A DNA stretch of 30,227 nt, from positions 1 to 30,227 of IMG/VR virus record IMGVR_UViG_3300013758_000001; one strand, 5' to 3'. The stretch comes from a virus. Positions 22,630-26,787 of the stretch are shown in pieces; position 1 is the first letter of the stretch; each line of letters opens with the position of its first letter. The notes beneath the pieces were generated by a model. It did no database searches, was not told the origin of the DNA, and saw only the letters and a list, made by a program, of their open reading frames with translations. Made by a program: the position numbers and the translations under genes.

Positions 22630-23073
22630 CTAGGCGTGCCCCGCCTTGACGCACCTCTCCACTGCCATCACGCCATCCTCGTAGATTGAGATGCTGAACG
22701 GCTTCTTCGTGCCGTCCGGCCAGACGGATTGCTGCTGAGCGGCGAGCGTCACTGACGTCGTGAGGCCACCACCCACATGCAGGCCATCTGCCTTCGCCCA
22801 TACCCCAGGCTGGGACGTGTCCCCGTTGATCCAGGCCCCGATCATGTAGATGTCGTTGTGCTCCTTGCTCTTCACCGCGAAGGTGTCGGTGAGCTTCAGC
22901 GCAGGCTTGCCGTCATCGACACCGCTCGCGAGAGCCGTCACCAGATCGGCGGGCACGGTCACGCAAGGGAGGGCCGCCGTCGCGGCCTTCTCCGAACCAC
23001 CGCCGCATCCAGATGCGAGCAGGACTAGAGGGATGATCACGAGTCGGTTCATGGGCGGAACGTAGCGCGGCAT
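22630..23073 (-). CDS. Lipoprotein, possible lysogenic-conversion gene
   Basis: A 147-residue leftward gene with an excellent ribosome binding site (AGGAGG, 7 bases before its ATG). The N-terminus MPRYVPPMNRLVIIPLVLLASGC is a lipoprotein signal with lipobox LASGC and lipidated Cys23, followed by a GGGSEKAAT linker. The mature part (LPCVTVPADLVTALASGVDDGKPALKLTDTFAVKSKEHNDIYMIGAWING...) is beta-rich with two further cysteines (CVTV near the start and ERCVKAGHA at the end) that may pair. It is likely anchored outside the membrane. Location beside the integrase in the lysogeny arm suggests expression in the lysogen, perhaps in surface change or superinfection exclusion. I recognise no family. 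Confidence 0.75.
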   Translation of the reverse strand: MPRYVPPMNRLVIIPLVLLASGCGGGSEKAATAALPCVTVPADLVTALASGVDDGKPALKLTDTFAVKSKEHNDIYMIGAWINGDTSQPGVWAKADGLHVGGGLTTSVTLAAQQQSVWPDGTKKPFSISIYEDGVMAVERCVKAGHA

Positions 23074-23101: not shown

Positions 23102-23941
23102 TCACGCGGCTTCGCCGAGCTGCTCGATGGCCTTGGCGGCCCGCGCGTTGCTGTACGCCGCGTACCCGGCGGTAGTGGTGGGGCTGGCGTGTCCCAAGAC
23201 CTCCTGCGTCACACGGATGTCCTGGCTGAGGTCATAGACCCGCGTCCCGAAGCGGTGCCGCAGGGAGTGCAGCGAGCCGGGGATGCCGATGCCGTGCAGG
23301 TAGTCGTTCGCCAGATGGCTGACCTGCCATGGGTGGTTGGCCCCCGGCTTGCCGTCCGCTCGGGGGAAGATGTATCCGCGTGCCGGCATCCCGTGCACGC
23401 GCAGCTCGCCGAGCACCATGCGGCTTAGAGGGACGATGCGCTCCTTGTTCCCCTTCCCGATGACGCTCAGCACGGCGGGCGAGGACCCGTCGCGGACGTG
23501 CTCGCGGCACAGCCCGGCAATCTCGGCTGCGCGCAGTCCCTCGTAGGCGGCCAGGATGAGCCAGGGGCGGATACGCGCAGGCGCTCCCGCGATCGCGAGG
23601 ACGAGGTCATCCTCAGCTATCGGGTGCGGGATTGACCGGGGCTGCTGCACGACGACAAGGACGCGCGATGGGTCGGAGATGATGAAGCCATTCTCGACGG
23701 CCCAGCGGAAGAAGGTACGGGCGTGGGAGTGCCAGGAGGCGCGGTAGCGCGGGCTCATGTGGCTGATTTCCCGTTGCCAGCGGTCCAGGTCTGAGGGCAT
23801 TACGGCGGCGAGGTCGCTGCTGTCGATCGTGAGATGACGCGCGAGCCGCTCGAGCGCATTGGATCGCTCGTGGATGGTGCGTGGGGAGAGGTTGCGTAGC
23901 CGCATCTGGGCCAGGTGCTGAGTTAGCGCGTCGGTCTGCAT
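23102..23941 (-). CDS. int: Tyrosine recombinase integrase
   Basis: A 279-residue integrase from ATG 23941 (an in-frame TTG at 23950 lies too close to the ribosome binding site). The N-terminal SAM-like core-binding domain (MRLRNLSPRTIHERSNALERLARHL...YRASWHSHARTFFRWAVENGFI) precedes a catalytic domain with Arg137 (YEGLRAAEIAGL), Lys163 (GKGNKER), His225-x-x-Arg228 (LHSLRHRFGT), His251 (LGHASPTTTAGY) and nucleophile Tyr260. There is little or no separate arm-binding domain, so it is one of the shorter integrases. It lies directly downstream of the repressor, with its start 13 bases beyond the repressor stop. The C-terminus ends in GEAA; terminal Ala-Ala can act as a weak ClpXP degradation signal, but that is inference. 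Confidence 0.93.
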   Translation of the reverse strand: MQTDALTQHLAQMRLRNLSPRTIHERSNALERLARHLTIDSSDLAAVMPSDLDRWQREISHMSPRYRASWHSHARTFFRWAVENGFIISDPSRVLVVVQQPRSIPHPIAEDDLVLAIAGAPARIRPWLILAAYEGLRAAEIAGLCREHVRDGSSPAVLSVIGKGNKERIVPLSRMVLGELRVHGMPARGYIFPRADGKPGANHPWQVSHLANDYLHGIGIPGSLHSLRHRFGTRVYDLSQDIRVTQEVLGHASPTTTAGYAAYSNARAAKAIEQLGEAA

Positions 23942-23953
23942 GATCAGCAAGTC

Positions 23954-24241
23954 CTACCCTGTGCGCGACGCTCTGCACAACAACGAAAATGTTGTGACCT
24001 TCGCGTCCATCTCACCATGTTTGAGCCAGTGGTAGGGGACGCCACACCGCATCGCCCACTGCTTGAGGAAGATGTCGCGGACAGGACCGTGGTCGTTGGT
24101 CCACCGGCTCACCGTGGCTCGGCTCATCCCCAGCTCGTCGGCCATCGCCTGCTCGGTGACGCCCGCGTGCATGAGCGCCCGCTTCATGCGCCAGCCCTGA
24201 GTCTCTGGTGGCACGATCCCTTGTTCCCAGTTCTCTGTCAT
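23954..24241 (-). CDS. Immunity repressor-like HTH protein
   Basis: A 95-residue DNA-binding protein. The helix-turn-helix is at residues 27-48 (GVTEQAMADELGMSRATVSRW), followed by the FLKQWAMRCGVPYHWLKHG segment found in many small actinophage repressor/Cro-like proteins. It is transcribed leftward, divergent from the HTH gene at 24353 and immediately upstream of int, the usual place of the lysogeny repressor. The last 14 residues after the conserved fold (VTTFSLLCRASRTG) are encoded across a candidate attP core at 23976-23996, so integration would replace the C-terminus. The ATG has no ribosome binding site; a leaderless transcript is plausible. Repressor rather than Cro is inferred from position. 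Confidence 0.8.
   Translation of the reverse strand: MTENWEQGIVPPETQGWRMKRALMHAGVTEQAMADELGMSRATVSRWTNDHGPVRDIFLKQWAMRCGVPYHWLKHGEMDAKVTTFSLLCRASRTG
23976..23996. other. Candidate attP core inside the repressor 3' end
   Basis: CACAACA (23976-23982), a 7-base spacer ACGAAAA (23983-23989), and TGTTGTG (23990-23996), the exact reverse complement of the left arm. A pair of inverted 7-bp sites around a 7-bp overlap is the layout of tyrosine-integrase core sites. It is A/T-rich in a G/C-rich setting and 35 bases upstream of the integrase start. No host site is available for comparison. Confidence 0.5.
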
Positions 24242-24343
24242 GTGTTGGATCTTGCCCTGCCTGTCCGTCGTGCGTCAAGACCTGAGCGTGACTGGAAGTT
24301 CTAAGTATTTGGTCCTTGACCGCCATGCGACATCTGTGCAACG
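24242..24343. promoter_or_regulatory. Divergent repressor / early-gene control region
   Basis: About 100 bases between the leftward repressor and the rightward HTH gene. Leftward: TTGACG (minus strand, 24278-24273) and CAAGAT (24254-24249) with an 18-base spacer, placing a start at or next to the repressor ATG. Rightward: TTGACC at 24316-24321, with no clear -10. Both TTGAC boxes are preceded by GGTC (GGTCTTGACG leftward, GGTCCTTGACC rightward), and GGTC-CTT-GACC at 24311-24321 is itself a small inverted repeat, so these may be paired operators for the repressor. The promoter matches are weak. Confidence 0.45.
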
Positions 24344-24352
24344 GTGACGCAC

Positions 24353-24538
24353 ATGCCGAACCAAGCCCTCCTGACAACCACTCAGGCCGGGGCGGTCCTC
24401 GGAAAGAGCGCTCGCACCATCCAGCGGATGGCCGACGCAGGACTGCTCCCCGTCGCACACAAGCTCCCCGGCGTCAAAGGCGCCTACCTCTTCCGCGCGG
24501 CGGACGTGGCCGCGCTCGTGCCCGCCGAAGCCGCCTAG
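24353..24538 (+). CDS. Excisionase/Cro-like small HTH protein
   Basis: A 61-residue DNA-binding protein from ATG 24353 (GTG 24344 is also in frame). The sequence LLTTTQAGAVLGKSARTIQRMADAGLLPVAHKLPGVKGAYLFRAADVAALV is the winged-HTH pattern of the HTH_17/excisionase family: an HTH with a KSARTIQRM recognition helix, a G-x-L-P turn, a wing and a final helix. As the first rightward gene opposite the repressor it could be the recombination directionality factor for int, a Cro-like switch protein, or both. A hairpin follows its stop. Confidence 0.8.
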   Translation: MPNQALLTTTQAGAVLGKSARTIQRMADAGLLPVAHKLPGVKGAYLFRAADVAALVPAEAA

Positions 24539-25664: not shown

Positions 25665-25993
25665 CGCGCCGCCCCGAGACGCGCATCAACGTCCGCTGCG
25701 ACGACTGCGGAGACCACGAGCTCCCCATCCAGGCCGTGCTCCTCGTCCTCTGTGACGGCCGTCCGGACCTCAACACGTACGCCTTCCGCTGCCCGCAGTG
25801 CTTCGCCCCGGTCAGCAAGGACGCGCAGCCGGGGACGGTCGCCCTGCTCCGGAGCGTCGAGGTACAGGAGGTCCACTGGCACATCCCCGCGGAGGTCTTC
25901 GAGCCGCACGACGGGCCGCCGATCGGCTACGACGACCTGATCGACTTCTGCCTCGGGTTGCGTGGCGACTTCGCGTCGGAGCTGGCGGCGTGA
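25661..25993 (+). CDS. Zinc-ribbon protein of unknown function
   Basis: A 110-residue protein from ATG 25661 (ATGA overlap). Cys13-x2-Cys16 (VRCDDCGDHELPI) and Cys44-x2-Cys47 (FRCPQCFAPVSK) form a zinc ribbon, followed by an acidic helical end (PAEVFEPHDGPPIGYDDLIDFCLGL). The ribbon with an acidic C-terminal half resembles small regulatory or adaptor proteins, possibly acting on transcription or nucleic acid. No family recognised. Confidence 0.72.
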   Translation: MTRRPETRINVRCDDCGDHELPIQAVLLVLCDGRPDLNTYAFRCPQCFAPVSKDAQPGTVALLRSVEVQEVHWHIPAEVFEPHDGPPIGYDDLIDFCLGLRGDFASELAA

Positions 25994-26787
25994 CGGCGCG
26001 CAAGTACGCCCTCGTCCTCCGCACGACCGCTGCGGACGGCTCATCCCGCAACGGCTTCGTGTGGCCCGAGTCCGGCCCCGTGTCCTGCTCGGACTGGAGC
26101 CCGGTCGCGGAGTGTGGCGGTGGATTGCACGGGGCGCTCTGGGGCGAGGGTGACGGCGGTCTGTTCTCCTGGGCCGCTGACGCCCGCTGGCTCGTCGTGA
26201 AGGTGCTCGCCTCTGACGTCGTGGACCTCGGTGGGAAGGTGAAGTTCCCGAGGGGCGAGGTCATGCACTGCGGCGACCGCCTCTCGGCTACGGCGCACAT
26301 GGCGAAGCACGGCCTGCCCGGTAAGGCAATCATCGGCGGCACCGCGACGGCCGGGGACTACGGCACCGCGACGGCCGGGCACCGCGGCACCGCGACGGCC
26401 GGGGACTACGGCACCGCGACGGCCGGGGACTACGGCACCGCGACGGCCGGTGACTACGGCACCGCGACGGCCGGGCACCGCGGCACCGCGACGGCCGGGG
26501 ACTCCGGCACCGCGACGGCCGGGCACCGCGGCACCGCGACGGCCGGGGACTCCGGCACCGCGACGGCCGGGGACTCCGGCACCGCGACGGCCGGGGACTA
26601 CGGCACCGCGACGGCCGGGCGCTACGGCACCGCGACGGCCGGGTGCTACGGCATTGTCGAACTCCACTGGTACGACACCCAGGCCAACCGCTACCGCGTC
26701 ACCATCGGCTACATCGGCGAGGACGGCCTAGCCTCTGGGACCGCCTACCGCTGCGACGACGCGGGCCAGATCGTGGCGGCGGCGTGA
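25990..26787 (+). CDS. Octapeptide-repeat protein (GTATAGxx x13)
   Basis: 265 residues from GTG 25990. The N-domain (about 1-116) has a strand-rich pattern with RNGFVWPESGPVSCSDWSPVAECGGGLHGALWGEGDGGLFSWAADARWLVVKV, then GEVMHCGDRLSATAHM. Residues 117-220 are 13 copies of GTATAG followed by two variable residues (DY, HR, DS, RY or CY), and a short C-domain ends the protein (IVELHWYDTQANRYRVTIGYIGEDGLASGTAYRCDD). Such fixed-length Gly/Ala/Thr repeats can fold as a beta-solenoid. The layout recalls proteins of unknown function with similar G-D-x-x repeats in phages and bacteria. It is coupled to both neighbours by GTGA overlaps. Function unknown. Confidence 0.72.
   Translation: MTARKYALVLRTTAADGSSRNGFVWPESGPVSCSDWSPVAECGGGLHGALWGEGDGGLFSWAADARWLVVKVLASDVVDLGGKVKFPRGEVMHCGDRLSATAHMAKHGLPGKAIIGGTATAGDYGTATAGHRGTATAGDYGTATAGDYGTATAGDYGTATAGHRGTATAGDSGTATAGHRGTATAGDSGTATAGDSGTATAGDYGTATAGRYGTATAGCYGIVELHWYDTQANRYRVTIGYIGEDGLASGTAYRCDDAGQIVAAA
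26338..26649 (+). repeat. Thirteen tandem 24-bp repeats
   Basis: Each unit is GGC ACC GCG ACG GCC GG plus a variable end, coding GTATAG and two variable residues. The first six codons are identical in all units apart from one silent third-base change (GGT near 26450). The last two codons vary among GAC TAC, CAC CGC, GAC TCC, CGC TAC and TGC TAC. Such uniformity implies recent amplification or homogenisation. Confidence 0.9.

What the first reader, a model, noticed from the sequence alone, without database searches (positions are those of the whole stretch)
23954..24010. Candidate attP core inside the repressor gene: possible integration-dependent immunity
A perfect inverted pair CACAACA / TGTTGTG with a 7-base spacer lies at 23976-23996, within codons 82-89 of the 95-codon repressor gene and just before int. 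Known: in BPs-like mycobacteriophages attP lies in the repressor 3' end, and integration swaps the C-terminus to give a stable repressor. The gene order here (divergent HTH gene, repressor, attP, int) is the same. Phage genes continue on both sides, so the viral form is what is seen. Against a full parallel: the viral C-terminus LLCRASRTG does not look like an ssrA-type degradation tag, although int ends in EAA.
Basis: partly seen in the sequence, partly recalled or inferred. Interest (0 to 1): 0.75.

Follow-up and report, generated by a model that had tools for sequence, protein, structure and literature searches.

The report
Phage repressor containing its integration site
This uncultivated phage very probably carries its chromosome-integration site inside its own repressor gene, so that only integration yields the working repressor, a switch already known in mycobacterial phages; the particular short palindrome that prompted the finding is a plausible but unproven exact crossover point.

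Summary
The inverted pair CACAACA-N7-TGTTGTG is exactly where stated (23976-23996, codons 82-89 of a 95-codon repressor, next to int). As a palindrome it is weak evidence: five such 7-7-7 repeats occur in the window, and local shuffles give p about 0.02. The repressor is homologous to known integration-dependent-immunity repressors. The integrase falls in a supported clade in which I reconstructed att sites inside the repressor 3' end for two Actinomadura elements and two Rhodococcus prophages; contiguous empty attB sites exist in related genomes of both genera. Published M. abscessus MabC prophages are in the same clade. Most viral-form relatives have repressors ending in -AA; this one ends SRTG, like MabC and Whack. 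Cores in this clade are short (9-18 bp) and not tRNA, and dyads in the known sites have a 6-base spacer, not 7. No attB for this phage was found in about 790 Actinomycetota genomes. So: new member of a known kind, exact crossover unresolved. By-products: the attP of Rhodococcus phage Whack, called unclear in 2026, lies in its repressor; and the same module sits in integrated tectivirus-like (tailless) proviruses of Actinomadura.

The parts
23954..24241 (-). immunity repressor (rep), viral form, 95 aa, HTH_3; C-terminus LLCRASRTG, no ssrA-like tag
   Evidence: PF01381 1.2e-7; phrog_2328 2e-20; homologous to annotated immunity repressors of phiGD34-2, Ewald, cluster G and P phages; 53% to the repressor of the L099 phage
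23957..24014 (-). inferred attP zone: 3' end of rep after the HTH domain (codons ~76-95)
   Evidence: position of mapped att cores in relatives; inferred for the window
23976..23996 (.). perfect inverted repeat CACAACA-ACGAAAA-TGTTGTG; candidate core, crossover not shown
   Evidence: no attB found
23102..23950 (-). tyrosine integrase, 282 aa, begins at the core-binding domain with no obvious separate arm-binding domain; ends GEAA
   Evidence: (PF00589 4e-15)
24344..24538 (+). divergent HTH_17 protein, excisionase/Cro-like
   Evidence: phrog_66
24242..24343 (.). rep / HTH intergenic control region (inferred promoters and operators)
   Evidence: gene layout

Best explanation
The rep-int cassette is an integration-dependent immunity switch. 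attP lies in the last ~20 codons of the repressor gene. Int recombines a short (about 9-18 bp) non-tRNA core with a host attB; the repressor 5' part stays at attL and its 3' tail goes with int to attR. The prophage repressor then ends at or just after the core on a host-supplied stop and is the stable form, while the viral 95-aa form is inactive or unstable until integration. Shown: homology of rep and int, gene order, and attP-in-rep for several clade members. Inferred: location in this phage, stability difference, exact crossover (23976-23996 is the best single candidate, about 40%).
For: Rep is homologous over residues 1-78 to known integration-dependent repressors, and 53% identical to the repressor beside int in the L099 phage. 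Int is in a clade supported 95/91 with MabC, Whack/Rhodococcus IEGM 1409, R. fascians A44A and Actinomadura integrases. Joined ends put the core inside rep for Actinomadura violacea and nitritigenes (14 bp), Rhodococcus IEGM 1409 (14 bp) and A44A (9 bp), with the prophage stop formed at or just after the core. A contiguous empty attB exists in two other Actinomadura and four other Rhodococcus genomes. In the L147 prophage rep is truncated (83 aa) by host sequence. Published MabC prophages have attP in rep (PMC8092301). About 19 of 28 tallied repressors beside clade integrases end in -AA. The window repeat lies ~6-13 codons past the WLKHG end of the HTH domain, within the range seen in relatives.
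Against: No attB, attL or attR of this phage was found: viral contigs gave two hits in 153-kb and 323-kb contigs that I did not examine and that are near chance level; 395 Actinomycetes genomes gave only scattered, mostly small-genome hits; 397 Actinomycetota genomes gave none. The host is unknown and the nearest integrase is only 46% identical. The viral repressor has no ssrA-like tag. Core dyads of the clade have a 6-base spacer, not 7. The window integrase's place within the clade is unresolved.
Confidence: 0.78

Rival explanations
1. Integration-dependent immunity is real, but the crossover is elsewhere in the rep 3' end and the palindrome is a chance or composition effect (a sub-case of the best explanation, not exclusive of it).
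For: Five equivalent palindromes in the window, local p 0.018-0.047; attP sites of relatives are poorly symmetric while attB sites are symmetric with a 6-base spacer; no attB for the palindrome.
Against: Its place (just after the HTH domain, just before int), AT-richness and perfect symmetry fit a core.
Confidence: 0.45
2. Conventional repressor; attP lies outside rep (for example just downstream of the repressor stop or elsewhere), and the 95-aa protein is the active form.
For: No degradation tag on the repressor; some integrases of the same clade (Rhodococcus KRD162, 14-2470) have no recognisable repressor beside int or at the other end.
Against: Only 4-13 nt separate rep and int, leaving little room for attP on the 5' side of int where the clade has it; relatives whose sites could be mapped have attP inside rep.
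Confidence: 0.14
3. The palindrome is an operator for the repressor or an RNA hairpin, not an att core.
For: HTH_3 repressors can bind dyads of ACAA..TTGT type (general knowledge, not tested).
Against: No full arm recurs in the rep-HTH control region; no terminator or Rfam hit.
Confidence: 0.06

Closest known systems
MabC/MabN/MabO M. abscessus prophages (Dedrick et al. 2021, PMC8092301)
   Same: MabC: same integrase clade (36-39%), attP in rep, short non-tRNA core, repressor without ssrA-like tag
   Different: Different phage, host and core; their att sites are mapped, here not
BPs / cluster G, I, N, P mycobacteriophages
   Same: Homologous repressor N-terminus (clusters G and P tested), gene order HTH / rep / int, attP in rep
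   Different: Their rep carries a tRNA T-arm sequence, absent here; longer repressor; the cluster G integrase of Aroostook has a long N-terminal extension
Rhodococcus phage Whack / prophage in Rhodococcus sp. IEGM 1409
   Same: Same integrase clade; 14-bp core inside rep; viral repressor without -AA
   Different: Whack integrase only 36% identical; core sequence unrelated
Actinomadura violacea / nitritigenes tectivirus-like proviruses
   Same: Integrase 39-41% identical in the same clade; attP in rep about 11 codons before its end
   Different: Tailless-virus capsid genes; viral repressors end WPVAA / WPLAA

Membership tests
Integration-dependent immunity systems | repressor divergent from Cro/Xis-like gene and immediately upstream of a tyrosine integrase | tested here: met
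Integration-dependent immunity systems | repressor and integrase homologous to systems with attP in rep | tested here: met
Integration-dependent immunity systems | attP core, shared with host attB, inside the rep reading frame | tested here: inconclusive
   no attB found; met in relatives
Integration-dependent immunity systems | prophage repressor shorter and active, viral form inactive | not testable with these tools
   no lysogen sequence of this phage; needs experiment
Integration-dependent immunity systems | ssrA-like tag on the viral repressor (common, not universal) | tested here: not met
   ends SRTG; also absent in MabC and Whack
BPs-type (tRNA attB) subclass | tRNA 3' sequence in the rep gene | tested here: not met
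   Searches (no tRNA; no Rfam hit), no T-arm in the rep 3' end read directly; T-arm present in comparison phages

The most novel reading that the evidence does not exclude
The integration-dependent immunity cassette is a mobile switch module that has crossed between unrelated virus lineages: this integrase clade serves both tailed phages (window, MabC, Whack) and integrated tectivirus-like, tailless proviruses of Actinomadura, where attP is also inside the repressor and the viral form carries an ssrA-like tail.
Probability: 0.75. Interest if true: 0.65.

Novelty: new member of a known kind. Interest (0 to 1): 0.42.

Why it matters
It extends a known but unusual lysogeny switch to an uncultivated phage lineage and shows why att sites of this integrase clade are missed: cores are only 9-18 bp, non-tRNA and hidden in the repressor gene. 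The same analysis places the attP of Rhodococcus phage Whack, described as unclear in a 2026 paper (PMC13313380), and finds the switch in tectivirus-like proviruses, a group reported mostly to lack recombinases (PMC5894146).

Tried and rejected
tRNA or structured-RNA attB: no tRNA in the window and no Rfam match. Exact 19-mer core in viral contigs: two hits in large contigs, not examined, taken as near chance level. 21-mer with up to 3 mismatches in 395 Actinomycetes genomes: 13 hits, several in 1.2-1.5-Mb genomes with a change inside the spacer; not taken as attB. 24-mer in 397 Actinomycetota genomes: none. Host identification by terminase and DNA similarity: nothing close. Repressor search in viral contigs with exact octamers: none, although relatives exist. 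Direct-repeat search gave no convincing att pair for Rhodococcus KRD162, 14-2470, 06-235, Pseudonocardia and Amycolatopsis. A 6-base-spaced dyad comparable to the clade's was sought in the window rep 3' end and not found. L138 first looked like a split prophage, but its ends share a 77-bp direct repeat, so it is read as a circular viral form; its repressor then ends GAAA (my reading of the join).

Full report
Observation. The repeat is present exactly as described. The coordinates, the codon range 82-89, the 95-codon repressor, the adjacent int ending EAA and the divergent HTH gene all check. As a palindrome it is weak evidence: five perfect >=7-bp dyads with a 7-base spacer occur in the window, and shuffling the 180 bp around the rep/int junction gives p = 0.018, or 0.047 if spacers 6-8 are allowed. 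The 21-mer is, however, among the 0.23% most AT-rich of the window.

Context. The window is a 30,227-base linear virus record, 66.5% GC, with terminase, portal, protease, capsid, tape measure and lysin genes on the left, then int, rep and an excisionase-like HTH gene, then a RecE-type exonuclease on the right. Phage genes on both sides mean that the unintegrated form is seen. No close relative or host could be named.

Repressor. It matches PF01381 and PHROG 2328 and, over residues 1-78, the immunity repressors of M. abscessus phiGD34-2, Gordonia Ewald and Rahul, and clusters G and P. In those comparison phages with an integrase, a tRNA T-arm sequence, the expected attP core, sits in the rep 3' part. 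The window has no such sequence. The closest repressor found is 53% identical, in the phage of L099.

Integrase. The closest homologues are 42-46% identical viral contigs and, among named phages, MabC-type and phiT45-1 (36-41%). In a maximum-likelihood tree it lies in a clade of 43 rows (support 95/91) that also holds MabC, Whack, Rhodococcus and Actinomadura integrases; its position within the clade is unresolved. The bacterial genome collection gave nothing closer than about 41%.

Where attP lies in this clade. For genomic relatives I fetched up to 60 kb from int and sought direct repeats between the int upstream region and the far end. In Actinomadura violacea (TGTTAATTCGCCTT) and A. nitritigenes (TGTTAAATCGTCTT) the core lies in rep. 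The prophage repressor ends VNSP* / VKSS* on a TGA made by the core's last T and host GA; the joined viral form ends YLWPVAA* / YLWPLAA*. In Rhodococcus IEGM 1409 the core AAACCTACGCAACC lies in rep, and in R. fascians A44A a 9-bp core TCGCCGGTA does, with the stop formed by core TA plus host A. The joined empty site is contiguous in two other Actinomadura genomes (94% and 86% over 175 bp) and, for the IEGM 1409 site, in four other Rhodococcus genomes (93-98%). In the L147 prophage the repressor is truncated to 83 aa by host DNA that reads, in reverse, like the C-terminus of a host protein (HHPEAKYFNAN*; I take it to be methionine synthase, from memory). Published MabC prophages agree.

Degradation tags. 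In viral-form relatives the repressor beside int usually ends in -AA (L097 LAA, L099 IAA, L100 SAA, L103 VAA, L121 VAA and others; 19 of 28 in a hand tally that is not corrected for relatedness). The window's does not, like MabC and Whack; its integrase does (GEAA). The tag is common but not universal in the published systems.

Is the palindrome the core? It lies ~6-13 codons after the end of the HTH domain and about 7 codons before the stop, within the range of the relatives. Against it, att dyads of clade members have a 6-base spacer: TAC-N6-GTA in MabC and Rhodococcus, AACCTAC-GCAACC-GTAGGTT in the Rhodococcus attB, GGTTCATAC-TCGTGA-GTATGAACC in L108. Relatives' attP sites are less symmetric than attB. 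No host sequence matches. With cores as short as 9-18 bp, a failed pattern search in unrelated hosts is weak evidence either way. I give about 40% that the crossover is in 23983-23989, and 78% that attP is in the rep 3' end.

By-products. (a) The Rhodococcus phage paper (PMC13313380) calls Whack's attP unclear. Whack's rep contains AAACCTACGCAACC, the mapped core of a near-identical integrase in IEGM 1409 (the two sit 0.015 and 0.022 from their common node), so attP is in rep. (b) The Actinomadura elements (about 16.5 and 17.4 kb between cores) encode a protein 25-30% identical to major capsid proteins of the tectiviruses Toil, P19, WheeHeim and Forthebois, a packaging-ATPase-like protein and lysins. 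Yutin et al. report that most Toil-like prophages lack recombinases (PMC5894146). I found no report of this switch in tectivirus-like elements in two literature searches, which is not proof of absence.

Noticed in passing
L273-L275 (Actinomadura violacea G001:C1 ~177030-194417) and L276 (A. nitritigenes G004:C83 ~118055-134558): Integrated tectivirus-like proviruses (capsid protein related to Toil/WheeHeim, packaging-ATPase-like protein, NlpC/P60 lysin) with a tyrosine integrase and attP inside the repressor; the site lies upstream of a RelA/SpoT-like gene (my reading of the reading frame).
   Followed up: partly
L083 (Rhodococcus phage Whack) rep 1564-1938: Contains the 14-bp core AAACCTACGCAACC mapped in Rhodococcus IEGM 1409; places Whack's attP, called unclear in PMC13313380.
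   Followed up: yes
window 22630-23073 (-): Small lipoprotein-like gene just downstream of int (147 aa, no Pfam family), a usual position for lysogeny-expressed cargo next to attR.
   Followed up: no
window 25798-26787 (+): Protein strongly matching phrog_18079 of unknown function (5e-72), in the early region before the recombination genes.
   Followed up: no
L101 and L102 (left ends): Host-like coding sequence (looks like an oxidoreductase and an acyl-CoA dehydrogenase start) begins within ~150 nt upstream of int, as expected if these are prophage edges at the int 5' side.
   Followed up: partly
L138 / G416: Contig of 56.4 kb with a 77-bp terminal direct repeat lying in rep: a circular viral form with a repressor ending GAAA.
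   Followed up: partly
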